NCBI GenBank assembly: GCA_000467715.1
Contig: AJFK01000064.1
Location: 1 to 64,000, forward strand
Direction of reading: 5' to 3'
Source: Hysterium pulicare CBS 123377
Lineage: Eukaryota; Ascomycota; Dothideomycetes; Hysteriales; Hysteriaceae
Length of the DNA stretch: 64,000 nt
This document shows positions 12,410 through 61,121 of this stretch, piece after piece. The position numbers and the translations under genes are program-made. Numbering within the stretch: position 1 is the first letter of the stretch; every line of letters starts with the position of its first letter. The notes beneath the pieces are model-generated. The model worked only from the letters and a program-made list of their open reading frames with translations, made no database searches and had not been told where the DNA came from.

Positions 12410-12685
12410 CCTGGTTATTAAGGCTGGTAAGGGTATGATGAAGCTCTGTGGACAAGTCGGTTATTTGCTTGAGAGTCAATCTGATGTTAACATGATGTCC
12501 AATTGAGCGGACAGATTCAGGTGTTGAAGTAAAGTTTGCTCGTGTAGGGGGCAGCACTAACTTTTACCGACGCGTGGGCGCATCAGGGGTGCGTTATCAC
12601 ATGTTGATCACAAAAAGAAAACCCTTCTGAGATGTTTCTCCTACTCGAGTTTAGTCCTTCTTATTGAAGAAGCAAAAAGAATATT

Positions 12686-12779
12686 TCCGTCGCCGGGAAT
12701 TGAACCCGGGCCTTGCCGGCACTTATAAGTGATCAAGCTCGATGAGAGCGGCAAATCCTAGCCACTAGACCACGACGGA
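12686..12779 (-). tRNA. tRNA-Glu (anticodon CTC) with a 23-base intron
   Basis: Read on the minus strand, the acceptor arms TCCGTCG and CGACGGA pair fully. The D-arm contains GGTCTAGTGGCTAGGAT, as in fungal tRNA-Glu. The anticodon stem TGCCG/CGGCA encloses the loop C-T-CTC-A-C, with an intron of about 23 bases inserted one base after the anticodon, the normal position. The T-arm is CCGGG-TTCAATT-CCCGG. A run of five T on the minus strand just downstream (about 12675-12679) is a suitable polymerase III terminator. No CCA is encoded, as expected. Confidence 0.93.
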
Positions 12780-32585: not shown

Positions 32586-33503
32586 ATGTCCGAAAGTCGA
32601 TCTTCTACGATGGAATCGCAGGTCGTGTCCCTAGACCAAGTTGAGCAGGTCTCGACAGAATCCAAGAAGACATATGACGGTGTCGGTGGCCGTACTTACC
32701 TCTGGGATGAACATGGGAATTGTTGGGTTGGACCTGGTGAACAGAAGGCCTGGCTAGTAGAGCTACTAGACGAGTGCTACACGAATCCCGATCAATGTTG
32801 CGGCGACCCTAGCAAGCCCGTGCCCTGGGAGGCATTTGTTGATAAGCCCTTCCATGTGTACCTGGACATCAGCGCAGCTAAGTCGATACTCCGATGCGCA
32901 AAGGCAGGGCTGAAGAAAATCGACGAATGCTTCGGAACCATCGAGCACCACAAGTTCGATGAAAAGAGCTTCGAAAATGCCGAGGACAGCGATAACATCT
33001 CTGACATAAACGGCAAACAGTCGCTAGTTTTGGCATGGATCGTGATATCAGAGTCCTTGAACAAAATATCTCTGATCACACCGTGCACAGAACTGGCAGA
33101 ATGGCCCCCAATTATTGAGAGGCGTTGGCCAAACCTTTCAAAATGCCTAGGGGCTCCACTAAAAGACCAGCGCAACATATGCGCACATTCTTATGGTGTC
33201 CCTGGTGCGTGGCGAGAGCGAGAAGGCAGGTATGCGTCTTACAGTAGTAAGAAGCATTGGGACAACATGCATAGCATGTTCCCAGACCTTCGAGAAGACT
33301 TGAAGCTTATGATCGAACAATTCCAAGCCAGCATCGAGGCATGGGTTTACCCGGAGCCCGACACGTCTGCGCTGAATCCTGACAACTGGGATCCCGAGAC
33401 CGACTTCCCGTGGCCAGCAACCGCCGAGGACGATGCTACTCTCGTCGAGGGCCAGGCTGATCAGCCTGACCAGTGGGCCGTGAATGATACCGAGGCATGT
33501 TGA
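32586..33503 (+). CDS. member A of an unnamed R-N-x-C-x-H paralogue family (HEPN-like, inferred)
   Basis: A single open frame of 305 residues starting MSESRSSTMESQ; function unknown. It shares a core with genes at 34214, 39119 and 60156. A helix DISAAKSILRCAKAGLKKID leads to IEHHKFDEKSF (about 119-129), a middle helical part follows, then LKDQRNICAHSYGVPGAW (192-209) and HWDNMHSMFPDLREDL. The R196-N197-x3-H201 spacing equals the R-x4-H motif of HEPN ribonucleases, with the customary polar residue after Arg. That is inference, not recognition. The N-terminal 85 residues (VGGRTYLWDEHGNCWVGPGE) have no counterpart in the paralogues, and the C-terminus is acidic. It has no signal peptide or membrane segment, so it is probably intracellular. 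Confidence 0.75.
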   Translation: MSESRSSTMESQVVSLDQVEQVSTESKKTYDGVGGRTYLWDEHGNCWVGPGEQKAWLVELLDECYTNPDQCCGDPSKPVPWEAFVDKPFHVYLDISAAKSILRCAKAGLKKIDECFGTIEHHKFDEKSFENAEDSDNISDINGKQSLVLAWIVISESLNKISLITPCTELAEWPPIIERRWPNLSKCLGAPLKDQRNICAHSYGVPGAWREREGRYASYSSKKHWDNMHSMFPDLREDLKLMIEQFQASIEAWVYPEPDTSALNPDNWDPETDFPWPATAEDDATLVEGQADQPDQWAVNDTEAC

Positions 33504-34213
33504 TTTCGAAAGCAACCATCGATATACTCGATTTGGATCGAGGTCTCATCTGGCCTGTCTCCCCTCATGGTCATGTCAACGATTCGGAACCCGCAACCTC
33601 GGCGCTCCAAAAACATCGAAGCGCATAAATACTTCAATATTGAAAAACATATAGGAAAAGTACTGGGAACTATAATGAGATGGTGATATACTGACCAGAG
33701 GTTCGTGGTACATCCCCGCTCCGCAGCCAGCTGTTGACAGCTTTGTTTACACCTGCATGTCCGCATGCATCAACACGTAGGACTCTACTGATATTTTCGC
33801 AGGACTTTCATATTCGGTTGCCATCACACATGCAGTGGTGGGTTTCACTGTACTCCTGAGGTCGCCGGCTCTTACCCTGCTGCCGCCCCCCCAACGCCCT
33901 GACAGTCACGGGATATGGCGGTTGTTGCATGCATATCTGCCTAGTTCGGTATGTGATGTAATAATTCACAGGATGAGGCGTAAGAATCGCGTCAAAGCGT
34001 CAGGCTTCGTTATATGGCTACCGCGGGACAACGCCGCGCCAGCATATAAATTTTGGACTCGCATATATATACTGGCTCGCAAGCTCCACGGATCGAACAG
34101 CACGACCAACACCACCGCCTCATTACCTGCCTCCTCACGCCTTTGCTCCACGGCTGATAGGTCTTTTCGCCTCTTTTACGAACCCCGAACATCTATTCAT
34201 CTTCATATCCAGA
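33504..34213. other. intergenic between family members A and B
   Basis: No gene is supported. A TATA-like stretch (CATATATATA near 34061-34070) about 145 bases before the next ATG is a plausible core promoter. Confidence 0.35.
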
Positions 34214-35064
34214 ATGCCTATCCTAAACCCCACCGTGAACGGTTTAGGTCCGCTCCTCGATCTATTATCCAGACTTTTTCCATGGCTCTCCAAACCGAAG
34301 GCCGTGCAAACAACTAACGGGGTTCAAACTACTCCTGACCAAGCCAGCGAGTCCCCCGAACAACCGGTTCCGCAGTTTGATTTCGGATACCTCGACTACG
34401 ATAAAGCCGAGAAAGTCTTAGAGCTTGCTTCTGCGGCCCTCCGCTGGGCCAAAGAAATCAAACAGACCGTTCAAATGTTCACTCTCAATAAAGCGAAGCT
34501 ACAAGCTGCTTGTGATAACAATTCGGTCTACCTCGTCAAAGTGGGTGTTCAGGCCTTGGTCACGCAGACGGTCTCATTTTCGGAGACCATGCAGAAACTG
34601 GACTACCCATTAGAATCGGATCCAAAGCTCCACGATCGCTTCTTTCGAGTAAGCATGCACCTTGGCAACGGCAGCCCTTTGAAGTCCGTACGGAATCAAT
34701 GTGGTCATAGTTATGGGGTCCCTCGACGATGGGATCATGATGACAACAAATATCAGGAGATTCCCTACAGCGTCTCGGCACACTGGTCCCTCGTAGAAGA
34801 TATTATAAAGAAAATGTTGCCGGCGTTGCATGATATGGTCGACACCATGGATGAGGTTCTATCGAAATTGGAAAAATCTGTTCGAGAAAAGTTCGATCAA
34901 TGGAATGTTGTCAGTGTTAGTACGTTGTAAGGTAACTTCTATTAGAACTCAACTCACTTTTTTTAGGCCTGTACCGAACCGTATTGGCGATTCCACTAAT
35001 TCTCGCTATCTTCGCAACTATCTATTATACCAAGATGTGTAAGCATTGCTACAAGGACTTGTAG
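34214..35064 (+). CDS. member B of the R-N-x-C-x-H family, with a spliced C-terminal membrane anchor
   Basis: Exons are 34214..34919 and 34967..35064 (267 residues). The intron has a GTACGT donor and a T-rich acceptor (TTTTTTTAG). Without splicing the protein would stop after VVSVSTL. With splicing it gains a hydrophobic span (VLAIPLILAIFATIYY, about 242-257) and a short basic, cysteine-containing tail (TKMCKHCYKDL), which makes it a likely tail-anchored protein. The family core is clear: YDKAEKVLELASAALRWAKEI, SFSETMQKLD, then LKSVRNQCGHSYGVPRRW with R160, N161 and H165, and HWSLVEDIIKKMLPALHDM. The function is not known. The HEPN-like assignment is inferred from the motif and the helical context. 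Confidence 0.75.
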
Positions 35065-36474
35065 CTGCCTTTGACTAACTTGCGGACAGATCTGGCATGA
35101 TACGCAAACGGCTACAACGGCTACAGAATCTTAAAAGACGTTCCAATTGACGATCTGTTGTAGAAATGGTTGTAGGGAGAGACGGTTTTGAGTTTTCTTA
35201 TTTTTATCAATGGCGATTGGTGCAATACTCATCTGTTTGGGTCTGCCATACTTAGTAATGGCATGTCGTTGTACATCTTTTTCTCCAGCTCCGGGTGTTC
35301 TTTGCGAGGCCAACCGGATTTGGATTGAGATACACAAGGAAGTTTCTTACAGGTTGTTTTCTAGCAAGCATTGTTTCTATACATATTATCACCATCAAGA
35401 ATCTGGATACCATCTTTCATGCTCTAGCATATAGGCCTTTGTGAAGTATGCATGACCTTACAAACTCCGTTACCATCTGTGTACGCAGATGAAATGAAAT
35501 CAACTCAACTTCTGAAAAGTGCAATCCATCTAGGCGCCGATCCTATGAGTTCTACAAGCAGTGAGACCAATGTCTCTGTTGTAGGGGAAATGGATGTTAA
35601 GGAACTCATAAACTCTAAGATAATAACGCTACAAGATGCTTTCAGATTTATGGTATTCGGGTTGGACTGTATTCTGTGTCAAGACCTCTCCTTCTGGTGC
35701 ATCTTCGTGAGTTCACGCTGGACCATTTGAGGGTTAGGATTAATCAGGTTAGCCTGAGACGGATGCACGCACGTCGACCTCGCGACATCTTTCTCTAACT
35801 TGCACCCCTTCTCCATTAATCACGAGATACTCCCAGACGGTTGCACTGAGCTCACAATAATATCAGTAATGCTTTAGAAGCAATGATAGAAGGGCGAACA
35901 CAAGAGATTAGCATTGCTATTGTGGGGATCGAGTAGGTAGAAATACTCTTCTACAGGCTATAGCGGTAAGGTTTCTCATTGGGAATCCGCTATGGCTTTT
36001 GCAGTATTGAGAGTCTCAAATCTCGTTAGAATAGGCTAGGCTCACAATAGAATCACAGTCTATACCATTCAGATACGGCGAAGTATAAAAGCGTCCTCTT
36101 TGTAACGACTTACTAATAATCACAGGGATGCTTGAAGGCTAGATCGAGAATGGAATGATACTACAACTCAAGACCAGGCTTATATTGCGTGCTCCGAAGC
36201 TGGGCGTCGTTCACGGCCTCGACATCCTCAAACTTGTCCTCGAACTAGCCTGTAGCCCGCATGAAGGAGGCAGCCGATCATCCTTCGATCATGTTGCAGT
36301 GTTTGATTGTTGCGAACACGAGCCGCGTCAAAAGCCTTCATCGCGTCATCATTCGAAATCCACTTTTTATGATAATATAGGAAGAACAAAAATTGCTTTG
36401 ATGTTTTTACTTCTCCTCCATGTTAGCTGTTTGTCTCATCGTACAGGACGAGCATATTGGATCAAACCTGCGCC
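35065..36474. other. gene-poor accessory DNA upstream of the MFS relic
   Basis: No intact gene is seen. Short frames (for example 35452..35730 and 36155..36478 plus) are open but featureless. They may be remnants of decayed genes; I could not assign any. Confidence 0.3.
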
Positions 36475-37977
36475 ATGAGTGAACTCCATCAACCATCCGA
36501 TAGTAAAGAGGCAGGGGAGAGCAAACAATCATCAATCCAACATCATGCGACACCGCGGCCTACGCATTCGGGTGCAGACGCTGCACTCGTTCTCCTCACC
36601 TCCACAGGCGGACTTCGTCGGCCACTTGACCCCGCCATCGACAAGAAACTCCTACGCAAAATCGATCTACACATGCCACTCATCTGCATCGTGTACTTTC
36701 TACAATATATCGACAAAACCGCCATATCCTACGTCAGCGTAACAGGCATACTCACCTCAACGCACCTTCATGGCAATTAGTTCAACTGGGTCGCATCCGT
36801 CTTCTTTTTTGGTCAGCTTGCGTTCGAATTTCCAACCATCCGCCTCATACAACTATTTCCGCTTGCAAAATATGTTGCCGTTAATGTGACGATATAGGGC
36901 GCCATTCTAGCATCTCTCGCGGCTTGTAAGACTTATGGATCGTTACTAGCTTGTCGATTTCTCCTCGGTATGGCTGAGGCGGCGATTGGACCCGCCTGGG
37001 TCATCTTCACCTCTCAGTGGCACACAAAAGAGGAGCAGGCCTTCCGAGTTGGTATCTGGTTCTCAGTCTGCGGCGCTGCGCAAATGTTTGGAGGATACTT
37101 TGCCTATGGTGTCACATCTCATGTCGGAGGTGATGTCCACACCGCATTGAGAGACTGGCAAATCATCTTTCTCTTTCTGGGTCTCCTTACCTTCTTGATC
37201 GGCATCAGCTTCTGGTTCATAATGCCGGATTCACCGACGGTAGCAGGAATTCTCTCGCAGGAAGAGAAAACAGCACACATCGAGCGCATTCGCCATAATG
37301 AGCAAGGTTTTGGCTCTCGTACGTTCAAATGGAACCAGTTCTACGAGGCTTTGAGAGCTCCAATGACCCGGCTGTACGCTTTCTAGGTCTTTGCCGCAAA
37401 CACCGAATTCTATCGCGACTAGCTTTGGTAACATTCTCGTAAAAGGAACGGGATACACCGGTAGAGAGTCTCTCCTACTCGTGAGACCCCTCGGGGCGTA
37501 CGAAATTGTTGCCCTCGTTGGCCTTACCTACATCGCCATGAAGACTAAACAACGCCTCTATGCCTGTATCGACGGCCACATTCCTGCCATCATTGGTGCC
37601 ATTCTCATGGCAACAACAAATAAGGCTTCGGCACTCGTAGGGTACTATCTCTCCGGCGGGATTCCTATCGGCTGGACCACCATCCTTGGCCTCCAAAGCT
37701 CGAGTGTGGCGGGTTCAACGAAGAAGGTCACGGTTGCGTGTATCGGAACAATTGCATACACGGTCGGGAACATAATTTCTCCCATACATTCCAATCCAGG
37801 GATGCACCACGGTATCTACCAGCCAAAATCTCCATTTGCATTCTGTACTTTCTGATCACCGTCGACCTCTTTGTTATGCGTTGGGTCTTTGTAAGGAGAA
37901 ATAGATTGAGAGATGAAGTCAAGAGCGTACAGGGTGATGCGTACAAAACGGAAGAGAACCAGAATTCTTTGATTTGA
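36475..37977 (+). pseudogene. broken MFS anion:cation symporter (allantoate-permease-like)
   Basis: The Dal5/allantoate-permease branch of the major facilitator superfamily is recognisable along its length: IDLHMPLICIVYFLQYIDKT, FNWVASVFFFGQLAFEFP, GMAEAAIGPAWVIFTSQWHT, the VGIWFSVCGAAQMFGG region, FGNILVKGTGYT, YYLSGGIPIGWTTILGLQSS, and IGTIAYTVGNIISP. The C-terminus DAPRYLPAKISICILYFL lies in a different frame. In-frame TAG codons occur at about 36778 (after HLHGN, where the family has Gln or a similar residue), at about 36896 (after VNVTI, where Trp is usual), and at about 37384. There is a frameshift just after the third stop and another near 37785-37795. No introns are needed to explain these breaks. 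The transport substrate of the ancestor cannot be told. It is a single-copy relic within the accessory stretch. Confidence 0.88.
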
Positions 37978-39118
37978 CGGTTTACAAAATCCCGAGTTCA
38001 GATATGTGGTATAGGGCAATAAAGTTTCCTACCTACAGACAATCTTCTTAAGTTTAAGCAAGTCCAAGACGTATACCCTATCGACAATAGATTAGATAGT
38101 ATGTTAAGGATGAGCAGAGAACCACAAGTTGGAGTTAGAGCAAGGGCAGAGCTTTCATTCCCTTGAAGCCTTCCATGCATCTCGAGCAACTATAGCTTTG
38201 TACTTCATCTTTTCTAAATCATTGTCCACTCCACAGGAACGGATCCACAACCCTGAAAGAAAGTTAACCTTGGTACTTTCCCCGGTTACGAATCCAAGGC
38301 TTAGCAGAAGTTCAGCTCGCCTTCCTGTCCATCTCCGAAGTGAGCACACTAGAAAATTGACTCACACATTGAGACGTCTTGGAAACATGAGAAGTCTTGG
38401 TCTTAGATTACAACAGATAGCGAATATCTTCCTTCGGGCAACAGCAATCACCGGGAAGATGTCAATCGTCCGAAAGTTGTTGGAAGTTTCTAGGAGGGGA
38501 TGGGTGGAACTCAATAAGTAAGTTGCCAGGTGAGCAATGTTTGCATCTCTTCAAGTTTGTTTTCTTGGTCGTAAGTACACTTATTTCGCAAGTTGCCCGT
38601 ATAAAGTGGTAAGAGAGCGAAGGTACTCTCGCCAGCAATCTATCCGAAATTTTTATTTTTTTGGGGTGGTTTTTGAAGAAAACCCCTTCAGCACTCAGAT
38701 GTATGAACCCACTAACTGTTCTCCTACATTAGATTTCAGGGCTTGGTACCTTACTGAACAAAGATTTTGTTCTGAGAAGATGACAAGGACTGCCATTGTC
38801 TTCCATCTCCAGTCTCTGATTCACAGTTTCTGGCAATGTGAATGTCGACAGAGAGCCAGTTCCACTCGCCTATTCACAAGTTTCATTCGTTTCAATCCTT
38901 GACGAAGAGAGTTTGATTCACATCAATAGGACATTCACAAGATTCAGGCACGCTTGGTCTAATCCTGTCGCAATGCCTCGTCCAAGTCTGAGCAAGAGGC
39001 ACTATATAATGCCCATTCTTACAGCCACTACCTTCAATATACCTCGACCTTGTCCACAGATACCAAGAAATACCACTGCAAAGCTTCAACAACAGGATTG
39101 TAGTTCCACTCCTACGTA
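37978..39118. other. gene-poor accessory DNA
   Basis: No supportable gene. A 130-residue plus-strand ORF (38129..38521) shows no family features. Confidence 0.35.
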
Positions 39119-40359
39119 ATGCCAAACATGGACCCTGCCAACCCAGAAAAAGATGGTTAGTAACCCGAACTCCCCTTTTAGGCACAGTACAGATGGCTAT
39201 CGATGTTGGAGTATCTATACACTTCGAGTCTGCCATGATGCCCCCACTGTTCTCACTCATTTCAATCATGAAATAAGTAGCTAACAATTTCGCACAGCGA
39301 CTGGAAAGAATCTGAATATCAATTCTCCTGAACCTTCGCACGACGAATTAGTGTCAGACACTATGTCTCCAACGGACTGGGTCGCGGACTTACCTAATGC
39401 GAACCCTGAGTCGAGTGACAATTCCCAACCGGAAGTTGAAGACGACGAAGAGGAACATATATCCCAAGCTGCCAACAATATCCCCAGAGTTCACATTCCC
39501 GGTTTTGGTCCATCTTGTTGACGAGGGAAAAGGCGGAATATGTACTCGCTGTGGCACAAGCTGCGCTGTACCAGCTCTCTGAGATCCGAACCAATGTCAA
39601 CCGGTACAGATTCACTTGGCAGAACTTCGATGAGAAACGCGAAGACCCGGACCCAACTATACGGAATGCTGTAAAGGCCGTCGTCCAATGCACGACTAGC
39701 CTTTCAGAGACGGTACAGAGGTTGGATGAAACTTGGGCCAACGATCCCGTCCTTGATAAGCGCTTCGTGGTGATTGACAGTGTCCTGGGAAAACAATGTT
39801 CCCTAGTTCTGATGCGTCACAAATGTGCCCATAGATTCGAGGTCCCGCCGCCCTGGAAATACGACTACGTCCAGCATCGCGAACCTTATATTTCTGTGGG
39901 TCATATGACATATCTTCATGAGATATATGGCCCTCTTACCAAAGACCTCAAAGATGTTGAGGCCATCTTGTCTAAAGCGATTCCAAGTCTGCCAGACTAC
40001 GGACGCGAGCAATCAGATCCCGTGGATGATCCTGCAAGTTGGAATTCTGCGCCTAAGCCAGAATGAGACCAAGACGAAACTCCTCCTCTCCGGCAGCGAT
40101 TCATCCAGAAGGTTTCGAACTTTTGGTCATCCACTGTTGGGAGAGTCACAGCGTCATCAAAGAAAGATAGAAACTTGTTGTATAAGAACGTGAAGTAGAG
40201 GCTGGTTGTTTGGACGCGTACGAAAAGGTATAAGTAGTCGGGATATGCAGCGAATATACCTGGTTTGGGAATAGGACCAATACAACTATCAGGGGCACTG
40301 TTGTTGGAGGCGCGCTTGGATTTGTCATGTCATATACTCTTAGAAAGGGGTACTGTTGA
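39119..40359 (+). pseudogene. member C of the R-N-x-C-x-H family, apparently decaying
   Basis: The best-preserved part is the frame 39515..40066. It carries the family core (REKAEYVLAVAQAALYQLSE), TSLSETVQRLD, and RHKCAHRFEVPPPW, with Arg near 39815 and His near 39830, followed by GHMTYLHEIYGPLTKDL. Here the residue after Arg is His instead of Asn, and GVP has become EVP. An acidic N-terminal segment begins at the ATG at 39119 after a small first exon. A hydrophobic tail segment (TVVGGALGFVMSYTL) lies near the end, as in member B. The reading frame is interrupted about three times over the locus, so the gene looks broken, probably recently because the core is well kept. The exact gene structure is uncertain. 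Confidence 0.6.
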
Positions 40360-42221: not shown

Positions 42222-44099
42222 TCAACTTGGTACTCCCGCTAATGCAGTGACGACGCTCACCACCTGTGGAACTGAAGTCAGCGCTACAGTCACTGTCCCG
42301 AACAAACTCATCGACAGAGTTGCGAACGCAGCGGCGCGTGGATCCGTGACAAGGAGAAGTGCAGTAGCGATTGCGGAGGAATTAGCGCCTAGAGTTACAC
42401 CACGAGTAATGTAGTCATCTACAAACATCAGCAAGCCCGTTCGACAACCTATTGCCAACCAGATTTGGAAAGTTTAACTCACCCTCGGGTATCCTCATCC
42501 ACTTCAGCATTGGTGGTCCGATCAGTACACCCAGAATACCAGAAATAATGCACAGAACAGCCACAATGCTGAGGTCTCCCCCAAGATTCGCAGTTGCTGG
42601 CTGAGCAAGAGCGAGAGTGAGGCTCCTGCTTGCAAATGAGAGATTTAAGGGAGGTGATATTGAGAGTGCGTGGCAGAGGGCTGGATAGCCAAACAAGGAG
42701 GCAAGCGAAAGTGAGACGTTTGGGATGATAATTTGGAGGAACTGACATGTTAGGCCGGCTTTATCTGGACGTAGAAAGGAATAGGGGTCTCACATGTCGT
42801 TTTAACTCCGTCCGATATTGGAACATAGGGAGTGCCAAGGCTACAATGCCAACATCTAGCATTGAGCTGAAGATGTCACCGGCGCCTGGAAGTAGGAGAT
42901 TCTTTTCGCCGCGCCATAGTTGCGTGTACTTGGTTCCAGTTTTGTAGTCGTGCAGAGCATCATGAAGGGTGTTACCTCGGATAAGGGCGAAGATCCAGAT
43001 ACCTATCGCTGTAATGAAGGACGAGACTAGAACGGGGTGTAAGAAGCGTTTCCAGTGTGCAGGAAGTTTCAGGGCGATGAAGTAGGCCAGGATATTGAAT
43101 GAGAGTTGAACGGGCGTCGCGTATCCAAAATTATAGTAGATCGGAATGCCAATGAGAATAAATATCGAAGTATATGTGTAAAGATCTAGATTGCTTTCCA
43201 TCACTAATGCCCATTTCTGAGCGCGGGTGAGTGGAAGCGGATCTTGGCGTGGTGGGTTTATTAAAGTTGAAGTCACTCTAGGGGCTGCTTCAGGAGGCCC
43301 TCCGGATCCAGTTACCAATGACGGATCCTGTGCTCGGAGAGGTGCTTGGAGTTCATCGGCAGGGGAGGATCTATAAGAAGACAAGGAGATTTCAGAAGTA
43401 GCTATAGAAGGGGTAGCTGGCTCAGAAACATGGTGGCGTTGGGTCAATGGGATGTTGTCGTCCAGAGCACCTAGTTCTTCAGCTCTTTCAGTCATGGCAC
43501 GTTTTGACGTCCCTAGGACATACTGAAGCCCACGAACAAGGTAAGCAGTGAATATCATCATAGCAAAATAGCCAACAACTGAGAGAAAGTTAGTAAAAGC
43601 AGCAAACCCGATATATAAACGTGCTTACCAAAAACACCAATGACCTTCGCTATTTCAATGCCTCCAATGCGTGAACTCAGGGGCAGAAGAACGAATGAGG
43701 GGGAGAACAGGATATTGATGTATCGAAGAGCAAAGCCTCCCTACCTCGACTCAGCATACTTCCTGAACGTAACCATAATCATCTTACCGGCACATCGACT
43801 ACTCTTACAATACTTCTGGTCTTTCTTTCACCAAGAAGCATCTCGCAGCCAATAAGTGAAAAGAACAGGATGATCATGCAAGCCACCGACGACGGAAAGG
43901 ACACTGAACTCAATCCAATAAGACAGTCAACTCCAAGACATGCAAGCAGAATCATAAGTATTCCAATTGGAACGTATATCCAAGCTGTAAGTATTCGATG
44001 CCATGATGAGCGAGCAACCTGTGGTAATTTATTAGCCCGATTGAGTAATAATGCAATTACAAGGGATTTCAACCAAACGAACCGCTCTAGCGGCATCAT
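42222..44099 (-). CDS. LrgB-like multi-pass membrane protein
   Basis: Five exons join in frame: 44099..43788, 43740..43629, 43578..42794, 42741..42483 and 42418..42222 (554 residues). The C-terminal third matches the LrgB family (bacterial LrgB; the plant chloroplast glycolate/glycerate transporter PLGG1 is a fusion of LrgA and LrgB): LGGDLSIVAVLCIISGILG, then DDYITRGVTLGANSSAIATA. Hydrophobic N-terminal segments (LTAWIYVPIGILMILLACLG, SVACMIILFFSLIGCEMLLG) resemble an LrgA-like half. A polar, Ser/Pro-rich loop of roughly 110 residues separates the halves. In plants the family exports photorespiratory acids. The fungal role is not established. It shares a 304-base divergent promoter with GLO3. 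Confidence 0.85.
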
Positions 44100-59328: not shown

Positions 59329-60155
59329 TTTGTGCGGTTTTGCGGTGGTTTGTGGTGGAGAAGAGAGTGGCGATTAGGGCTGAGGACGCCTCGTTCTGGA
59401 AATCCAAGTTGGCTGTGAATTGGAGAAGTGGGCAAGAGAATGATTTTTTAGATAACTCTTGAGAAGTTTGGAAAGGACACTTAATGAGAATCGCTACCAA
59501 CCCTTGGAGTTTCTTGTATGCTGCTGCCTTGGGCAGAGTCAGCTTTAGGGTACGTGGATTGTGGTTCGAATGCGTGAGCAGAAAGCGATGAATACGTAGG
59601 CATGGTCAGCCACATGCTCGTGACTATTTCCGAACTCGCGAATGGTGTGCTCAGAATTGTCCAACGACCCGTGCTAAGGGCAGGGTGCTCTACCGCCGGA
59701 GACATGACGATGTTCGGGTGGCGCTGTGGCGGTGCAACGGTGCTTCATCCACCTGCTGACGGCCGCTTTGTACGCCTTTCCTACAAATACGTTATATCCA
59801 AGGAATCCGGTCAGACCTTATATTCTTACTTCGATTCTAACTAATGGCCTCTCACAGTCAACACAAGGCCAAATGCTTAGCTTTTCTGAAAACACCCAAG
59901 CCTTATCTTAGAACGAACCCTATTAGTCTCATGGAAGCATTCGCCAAGGCCTCATATACAAAACTATTCTTCCAGCCAACTCGCTCTTCATCCTCTTCCT
60001 TGTAAACCCAACATGTCTTAATTTCCGTCTCCCTTGTTACGACTTCGTAGCCGGTAACTCTTTATTTCTCAAATGGCCAACAGTGTGAAAGCTCTGCTTC
60101 TTCCAACGAAGTATCACTCACTTGTTGCCAGCGCTTTCCTCGGTGCTACTCTGAC
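59329..60155. other. intergenic: zinc-finger gene promoter and 3' flank of family member D
   Basis: An AATAAA on the minus strand (about 60060-60065), some 90 bases past the stop of member D, is a plausible polyadenylation signal. A 36-residue plus-strand ORF at 60073..60183 overlaps this end and is discussed in the findings. Confidence 0.4.
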
Positions 60156-61121
60156 TTATCGCATGTTGTACCGAGCTAAGTAGTCCCTGATCTGCTGTTC
60201 GGAGAAGGACATGCTCCAACCGTCAGCCTTACTATCTTTTCTCTCGGGATGCTTTTTGGAGTCTGGAGTTCTGTCCCAGGATTCCTTTTCTGCTGCCGCC
60301 CACTCTTCTGGAGTGTCTTCCTGGTTCTCCTCCTTCGGCTTAGGTAGGCCCAGAAGCGCGTCTTCCATGAGGTCTTCAAGCAGTTCCAGTTCAACTCGGA
60401 TTCCTGGGAGCAGGTCGGATACGGTCTGCCAGTGTCCTGCGCTACTGTATGTCTCAAGATACTCCACATCGTCCGGCAACCAAGGGCGAGGCACCCCAAC
60501 CGCATGTCCGCATTTGTTTCGTTGCATCTTCAAAGCGCTGCCTATGCCCATGCAGTCCTCCCTGAGTCTCGGAAAGTTATAGGGAAGCACTAGATAATTG
60601 ACAAATACGGTTTCCAACAGGTCTAGCGTTTCAAATAAGCTGATGGTCAATAGACAGATTGCCAAAACACCCTCTCTTCCTTCTAGCTCATGGCTTCTAT
60701 ATGCCGCCACAAATGTGTGGCTATCAAACTTATGGTGCTCAATGATACCCTCGATTTCCGTTATAAACCTGAGAGATTTCTGGGCGACCTCGAGCACCCA
60801 TTTGGTCTTCTTCCAAGCGTCGGTGAAATCTGGGTTGAAAAAATGTACCCAGTCCCATTGGGGAGCATCTGGCTGTTGGCAAACCGGGGCTTGTATAGAG
60901 TCGCCTTGTTTCTTACGCTTGACAGCCGTCAGAAGTCTCTTCAGGGACAACTTCCCAACGCGATTCTTGGCCGACCGATATGCACGGATAGGCCAGTGCT
61001 GCGAAGTAGCGTTGCGCTCATCCGACTCTCCATATATCGTTGCTGGTTCCTCGTGGCTTCGATCTTTGGCTTGGTCTGCAGCATCAGTTCGAGACCGAAA
61101 TAAAGCCCTAAGGACGTGCAT
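60156..61121 (-). CDS. member D of the R-N-x-C-x-H paralogue family (HEPN-like, inferred)
   Basis: A single open frame of 321 residues starting MHVLRALFRSRTD. It is similar to members A to C: WKKTKWVLEVAQKSLRFITE, IEHHKFDSHTF (127-137; its first seven residues are identical to member A), TISLFETLDLLE, LKMQRNKCGHAVGVPRPW with R201, N202 and H206, and HWQTVSDLLPGIRVELELL. The N-terminal 90 residues are basic and polar and unique to this member. No membrane span is visible, and the C-terminus is charged. It lies 20 kb from the other three and on the opposite strand. The function is unknown; HEPN-like ribonuclease activity is a hypothesis. Confidence 0.78.
   Translation of the reverse strand: MHVLRALFRSRTDAADQAKDRSHEEPATIYGESDERNATSQHWPIRAYRSAKNRVGKLSLKRLLTAVKRKKQGDSIQAPVCQQPDAPQWDWVHFFNPDFTDAWKKTKWVLEVAQKSLRFITEIEGIIEHHKFDSHTFVAAYRSHELEGREGVLAICLLTISLFETLDLLETVFVNYLVLPYNFPRLREDCMGIGSALKMQRNKCGHAVGVPRPWLPDDVEYLETYSSAGHWQTVSDLLPGIRVELELLEDLMEDALLGLPKPKEENQEDTPEEWAAAEKESWDRTPDSKKHPERKDSKADGWSMSFSEQQIRDYLARYNMR

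What the first reader, a model, noticed from the sequence alone, without database searches (positions are those of the whole stretch)
32586..40359. An unnamed paralogue family with an R-[N/H]-x-C-x-H motif that looks like HEPN
Three loci here and one at 60156..61121 share, in order: a helix with an A-x2-V/I-L-x3-A pattern, an S-x-S/F-E-T-like helix, then an exactly spaced R-[N/H]-x-C-x-H-x3-V-P-x2-W block and a later H-W/M and helical tail. R-x4-H with a polar residue after Arg inside a helical protein is the hallmark of HEPN RNases (HepT, Las1, RnlA and relatives). No fungal family with this Cys and V-P-x-x-W decoration is known to me. Expansion, divergence and decay in a gene-poor stretch suggest a conflict-type or self/non-self role.
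Basis: partly seen in the sequence, partly recalled or inferred. Interest (0 to 1): 0.8.

Follow-up and report, generated by a model that had tools for sequence, protein, structure and literature searches.

The report
Small fungal family of HEPN-like proteins
A fungal genome carries a small cluster of related proteins whose predicted helical shape and conserved residues resemble a widespread class of RNA-cutting enzymes (HEPN), although no database search made here confirms the kinship.

Summary
Four proteins in the window (A 32586-33503, B 34214-34930, C 39443-40066, D 60156-61121 minus) are one family, pairwise E 2e-5 to 3e-18. Searches of the window's 37.2 Mb genome found those four, in one 108 kb contig, and a divergent fifth on contig C468. 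R-[N/H]-x-C-x-H is kept in 5 of 5; VPxxW in 4 of 5. No convincing Pfam, NCBIfam, PHROG, PADLOC or PDB sequence match. Two AlphaFold models (pLDDT 79.9; pTM 0.78, 0.76) show the layout that defines HEPN: four main helices, an insert between helices 2 and 3, Rx4H at the end of helix 3, a conserved Glu in helix 2 (Ex3[KR] in A, B, C). The motif arises in 18 of 200,000 column permutations. Against this, Foldseek found nothing at E<=0.001: HEPN chains fill 3 and 6 of the top 50 rows, below generic bundles. Profile-profile comparison with two HEPN families was negative, but those two also fail to find each other. Conclusion: probably an uncurated fungal family of the HEPN superfamily, likely RNases; C looks broken, B may be membrane-anchored. 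A conflict role is unsupported beyond duplication and decay.

The parts
32586..33503 (+). Copy A: open frame of 305 aa, HEPN-like core about residues 80-260
33171..33188 (+). Copy A motif RNICAH
34214..34919 (+). Copy B, probable exon 1 (holds the whole domain); unspliced, the frame runs to the stop at 34928-34930
   Evidence: exon end read by eye
34691..34708 (+). Copy B motif RNQCGH
34920..34966 (+). Copy B, putative 47-base intron (GTACGT ... TTTAG), read by eye, not tested
   Evidence: sequence
34967..35064 (+). Copy B, putative second exon encoding a hydrophobic stretch (LYRTVLAIPLILAIFATIYYTK), a possible membrane anchor; hydrophobic stretches are common by chance here (118 of 300 random 600-base stretches)
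39119..39155 (+). Copy C, putative first exon (MPNMDPANPEKD), read by eye
   Evidence: sequence
39443..40066 (+). Copy C: core in an open frame with no in-frame ATG before it; the likely upstream exon runs in another frame, so probably a broken gene (or a sequence error)
39815..39832 (+). Copy C motif RHKCAH
60156..61121 (-). Copy D: open frame of 321 aa; core modelled as 60306-60866
60504..60521 (-). Copy D motif RNKCGH

Best explanation
The four window genes (and a fifth elsewhere in the genome) encode a fungal protein family built on a HEPN-type domain: two alpha-hairpins, an insert between helices 2 and 3, and R-[N/H]-x-C-x-H at the end of helix 3. By the mechanism proposed for HEPN enzymes the His would activate the 2'-OH of RNA, the Arg would bind the backbone or stabilise the intermediate, and the polar residue after Arg and the helix-2 Glu would assist, probably across a homodimer, giving metal-independent RNA cleavage. 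Shown: kinship of the copies, conservation of the motif, predicted helix order and motif position. Inferred: HEPN ancestry, helix packing, RNase activity, dimer. Speculative: membrane anchoring of copy B and any role in stress or conflict.
For: Family kinship. R, C and H of the motif invariant in 5 of 5 copies; the residue after R is N in 4 and H in 1. In 200,000 permutations of the 153 gap-free columns the motif (invariant R, next column all N/H/D, invariant H at +5 to +7) arises 18 times. Literature definition: Rx4-6H, polar N/D/H after R, at the end of helix 3; acidic residue in helix 2, often in Ex3[KR]; frequent insert between helices 2 and 3 (PMC3710099, sections 6 and 7 read). The models match: D has H14-45, H61-89 (E79), insert with H93-97 and H99-105, H111-123 (R116, H121), H142-173; B has H5-31, H49-71 (E67), insert, H98-106 (R103; H108 just after), H130-172. 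Ex3[KR] is met in A, B and C (read). HEPN chains recur in the 50 rows shown for both models (7ae6, 7ae8; 8yuf, 7bxo, 3jrt, 5yep, 6m6u), best TM-scores 0.48 by query and 0.52 by target.
Against: No Foldseek match at E<=0.001; designed bundles, Borrelia surface proteins and sensor domains rank above HEPN. Only the best of five AlphaFold models in each run reaches pLDDT 79.9 (the weakest 53.9 and 58.0), from four-row alignments. Confidence is low at and after the motif: in D the blocks 121-130 and 131-140 average 62 and 60; in B the block 101-110 that holds the motif averages 68 and the next 47. Profile-profile comparison with pEK499_p136 and RnlA HEPN families was negative, and the best alignments did not pair the motifs (the positive control failed too). 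No HEPN hit in Pfam, NCBIfam, PHROGs or PADLOC. The helix-2 Glu is absent in the fifth copy and Ex3[KR] fails in D. The short motif occurs in unrelated proteins: a viral glycoprotein chain with RNICAH matched at E 0.91. Helical models can match HEPN folds without meaning: authors of PMC13211469 (passage) dismissed a K28 killer toxin match to the Swt1 HEPN domain, in a case that lacked the motif.
Confidence: 0.62

Rival explanations
1. A non-HEPN helical bundle in which R-x-x-C-x-H is a structural or metal site (Cys119, His121 and the later His145 of D could hold a metal), resembling HEPN by convergence.
For: Foldseek ranks generic bundles above HEPN; Cys is as invariant as R and H (5 of 5); H145 is invariant in 4 of 4 window copies.
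Against: H145 is missing in the fifth copy; the R and the N/H after it have no obvious role in a metal site; motif position and insert match HEPN.
Confidence: 0.2
2. A HEPN-derived domain that binds RNA or protein but does not cut, for example a regulatory or inhibitory paralogue.
For: Non-catalytic HEPN domains exist (PMC3710099); helix-2 Glu and Ex3[KR] vary.
Against: The R and H are among only seven invariant positions of the five copies, whereas the HEPN domains taken as non-catalytic have lost the motif or conserved polar residues.
Confidence: 0.15
3. Helical membrane-acting effector domain of fungal non-self recognition (HeLo-type, recalled), with no enzymatic activity.
For: Helical prediction, duplication, one decayed copy, possible hydrophobic tail in B.
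Against: No Pfam match for the five proteins beyond two weak unrelated ones; no HET or NACHT neighbour among the 30 ORFs scanned; invariant R and H are unexplained.
Confidence: 0.03

Closest known systems
HEPN superfamily RNases in general (HepT, RnlA/LsoA, Abi families)
   Same: Helix order, Rx4H at the end of helix 3, polar residue after R, Glu in helix 2 in 4 of 5 with Ex3[KR] in 3 of 5 copies, insert between helices 2 and 3.
   Different: No sequence-level match; invariant Cys between R and H, and a V-P-x-x-W block after H in the four window copies; in a fungus, with no nucleotidyltransferase partner seen among the 30 ORFs scanned.
pEK499_p136-type HEPN family nuclease of plasmids
   Same: Motif RNSVAH, compared with RNQCGH here.
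   Different: hhalign finds no significant similarity (probability 0.57%) and does not pair the motifs.
Las1, the HEPN RNase of pre-rRNA processing
   Same: HEPN enzyme of eukaryotes; at E<=0.001 this genome has it at one place, two stretches on contig C388.
   Different: None of the five proteins matches the Las1 Pfam model.
C6orf70/DUF4209 and Ire1-KEN, membrane-associated eukaryotic HEPN RNases (PMC3710099, passages)
   Same: Would be the analogue if the hydrophobic tail of copy B is a real anchor.
   Different: No match to any HEPN model in Pfam; the tail is tentative and not shown for A or D.

Membership tests
HEPN superfamily | Rx4-6H motif | tested here: met
   R-x4-H invariant in 5 of 5 copies
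HEPN superfamily | Polar N, D or H directly after the Arg | tested here: met
   N in 4, H in 1 of 5
HEPN superfamily | Four-helix up-down fold, often with an insert between helices 2 and 3 | tested here: met
   Helix number, order and insert from two predicted models of moderate confidence; packing not inspected, only suggested by bundle hits in Foldseek
[quoted passage not shown]
   R116-H121 in H111-123; R103 in H98-106 with H108 just after; pLDDT there is modest
HEPN superfamily | Acidic residue in helix 2, typically Ex3[KR] (many families, not all) | tested here: inconclusive
   Glu in 4 of 5, Ex3[KR] in 3 of 5
HEPN superfamily | Significant profile or fold match to known HEPN | tested here: inconclusive
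   Foldseek HEPN rows at E 0.54 to 1.7, not significant; hhalign negative but its positive control also failed; Pfam negative
HEPN superfamily | Arg and His facing a shared cleft across a dimer | not testable with these tools
   No coordinates returned and no complex prediction offered
HEPN superfamily | Metal-independent RNase activity | not testable with these tools
   Needs biochemistry
Las1 | Match to the Las1 Pfam model | tested here: not met
   At E<=0.001 the model matches only contig C388 in this genome; no hit for the five proteins
Abi_2 (PF07751) | Match to the Abi_2 Pfam model | tested here: not met
   No match at E<=0.001 in the genome

The most novel reading that the evidence does not exclude
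A locally expanding family of fungal HEPN RNases, in none of the libraries scanned, with an R-[N/H]-x-C-x-H active site, at least one member anchored in a membrane, acting as a suicidal or antiviral RNA-cutting effector in the manner of bacterial HEPN toxins or Ire1.
Probability: 0.15. Interest if true: 0.7.

Novelty: new member of a known kind. Interest (0 to 1): 0.5.

Why it matters
The HEPN families that the survey passages read here place in fungi or in the eukaryotic ancestor (Las1, KEN, C6orf70, Swt1; PMC3710099) serve core RNA processing or stress responses; another paper lists the Pfam HEPN domain in some fungal proteomes without a role (PMC4102429, passage). A duplicated, fast-diverging family that keeps the catalytic pair while the rest drifts would be a candidate fungal RNA-cutting effector and gives a directly testable prediction: substitution of R or H abolishes RNA cleavage.

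Tried and rejected
Pattern scans for R-N-x-C-[A/G]-H codons over the genome gave 12 and 4 matches, with reversed-pattern controls of 12 and 3; by eye only the known copies (A, B, D and the fifth) lie in fitting frames, so the bare motif is not enriched. Copy C has RH and was outside that pattern. Searches for relatives in viral contigs (D), in bacterial and archaeal genome contigs (B) and in plasmids (B core) found none at their thresholds. No fungal collection was available and metagenome scans were capped at zero, so the spread among fungi is unknown. hhalign against two HEPN families was negative and without power. A RIP-type signature was looked for because of the decayed genes and not seen (thresholds recalled). 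A hydrophobic tail near each copy was sought; 118 of 300 random stretches also hold one, so only B, next to an intron-like sequence, is mentioned. Literature: searches 'HEPN fungal RNase four-helix', 'HEPN fungi' (30 of 130 papers listed), 'HEPN NLR fungal' (10 of 12), 'HEPN heterokaryon incompatibility', 'HEPN ascomycet', 'HEPN fungal genomes': among the titles and abstract openings listed, none describes such a family. Opened: PMC3710099 (abstract, outline, sections 6 and 7, passages), PMC4102429, PMC13211469 and PMC8195603 (passages only).
Full report
Observation. Searching the window's own genome (37.2 Mb, 596 contigs) with D finds C, A and B at E 3e-18 to 8e-17; A, B and C find the others at E 2e-5 or better. 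These searches score only the best candidates, so copy number is a lower bound. A profile search over the six-frame open stretches (25 aa or more) of the 108,177-base contig returns these four at E 4e-73 or better and nothing else below E 1; the profile was built from them plus the fifth, so this shows absence of further copies rather than kinship. One further copy lies on contig C468 (a 421-codon open stretch): A finds it at E 0.0077, its core finds A back at 0.0017, and a profile of the four window cores alone scores it at 18.9 bits against a best of 5.8 for 2000 shuffles of itself.

Motif. R-[N/H]-x-C-x-H is kept in all five copies; in the five-row alignment the invariant positions are L, A, R, C, H, P, L. 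The VPxxW extension is kept in the four window copies only. Permuting the 153 gap-free columns gave an invariant R followed by an all-N/H/D column and an invariant H at +5 to +7 in 18 of 200,000 orders. The definition was fixed by the literature, but the test was run after the motif had been seen. The bare codon pattern is about as common as its reversed control across the genome (12 against 12, 4 against 3), so it is conservation and place that count, not occurrence.

Structure. Two AlphaFold runs on window sequences (four-row alignments), D and B first, gave mean pLDDT 79.9 and 79.9, pTM 0.78 and 0.76; the other four models of each run were weaker (down to 53.9 and 58.0). Both have a long helix 1, a shorter helix after it (D 49-57, B 36-45), helix 2 with the conserved Glu, an irregular helical insert, a short helix 3 ending at the R-x4-H motif, a loop with VPxxW, and a long helix 4. 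Apart from the extra short helix, this is the order that Anantharaman et al. 2013 (PMC3710099, sections 6 and 7 read) give for HEPN. Local confidence at the motif is modest: 86 and 62 for the two blocks of D that share it, 68 in B, with 47 for the block after it. Coordinates were not returned, so the packing and the facing of Arg and His were not measured.

Fold and sequence searches. Foldseek against the PDB found 406 and 565 matches at E<=10 and none at E<=0.001. Among the 50 rows shown, HEPN chains take 3 (D: 7ae6_B, 7ae6_A, 7ae8_D) and 6 (B: 8yuf_A, 7bxo_G, 3jrt, 5yep_B, 8yuf_B, 6m6u_H). The titles of 3jrt, 7bxo, 5yep and 6m6u do not say HEPN in plain words: 3jrt is named as an integron HEPN in PMC3710099; 7bxo, 5yep and 6m6u are taken as HepT-type chains by title, length and recall. 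These rows come from few distinct proteins, and designed bundles, Borrelia proteins and sensor domains rank above them, so this is consistent with HEPN but not enough alone. Pfam, PADLOC, PHROGs and NCBIfam gave no convincing match (the best was KwaB at E 0.0028 on B, weak and off the motif; others were E 0.014 or worse). PDB sequence profiles gave nothing below E 0.07, the best being SNARE and ice-binding chains; one chance hit was a viral glycoprotein with RNICAH, a reminder that the short motif is not diagnostic. hhalign against four pEK499_p136 and four RnlA HEPN sequences was negative (probability 0.57% and 0.31%; 1 of 60 and 5 of 60 column shuffles scored as high; the motifs were not paired), but the two HEPN families also failed to find each other (0.37%, motifs not paired), so the test has no power at this depth. 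A published caution: a low-confidence helical model of the K28 killer toxin matched the Swt1 HEPN domain and its authors judged that match not functionally relevant, in part because the motif was lacking (PMC13211469, passage). Here the motif is present.

Genes. A (305 aa) and D (321 aa) have intact open frames. B is intact and may splice at GTACGT (34920) to TTTAG (34966) into an exon coding a hydrophobic stretch; this was read by eye and is not tested, and such stretches are common by chance (118 of 300). C has no ATG before its core in that frame, and its likely upstream exon (ATG at 39119) runs in another frame: probably a broken gene, or a sequence error. Neighbours are ordinary: Vps36, Sac3/GANP, a PX-PB1 protein, SMC, OPT transporter, an MFS relic, cyclophilin, an LrgB-like protein, a Cys/Met enzyme, Hsp70; beyond the window a thioredoxin-domain protein, a fungal rhodopsin-domain protein, a peptidase M1, a carboxylesterase, a SET protein. 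That covers 20 window ORFs (the window has 122 of 110 aa or more) and 10 flank ORFs; no HET, NACHT or nucleotidyltransferase domain was seen among those 30, several of which had no match at all. Fungal_rhodopsin and Fungal_trans domains fit a filamentous ascomycete (inference).

Verdict. Real family; HEPN is the best-supported reading (0.62), ahead of convergence (0.2) and a non-catalytic HEPN (0.15). RNase activity and any conflict role are inferences. The family is in none of the four libraries scanned; its spread in fungi could not be tested here.

Noticed in passing
36427-37977 (+): Relic of an MFS transporter gene between copies B and C: Pfam MFS_1 on 36898-37383 (E 3e-17), with same-frame stops at 36778-36780, 36895-36897 and 37384-37386 and apparent frame changes after (frames read by eye).
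   Followed up: partly
60073-60183 (+): Short open frame MANSVKALLLPTKYHSLVASAFLGATLTYRMLYRAK that overlaps the tail of copy D on the opposite strand; possibly a small gene (read by eye).
   Followed up: no
37744 (+): A chance R-N-x-C-x-H in a frame that seems non-coding inside the MFS relic, showing that the six-residue motif alone is not diagnostic.
   Followed up: yes
12685-12779 (-): tRNA-Met (CAT) reported by ARAGORN; 95 bases, long enough to hold an intron.
   Followed up: no
42764-43624 (-): LrgB-like membrane protein (E 7e-11) in a fungal genome, a family better known from bacteria by recall.
   Followed up: no
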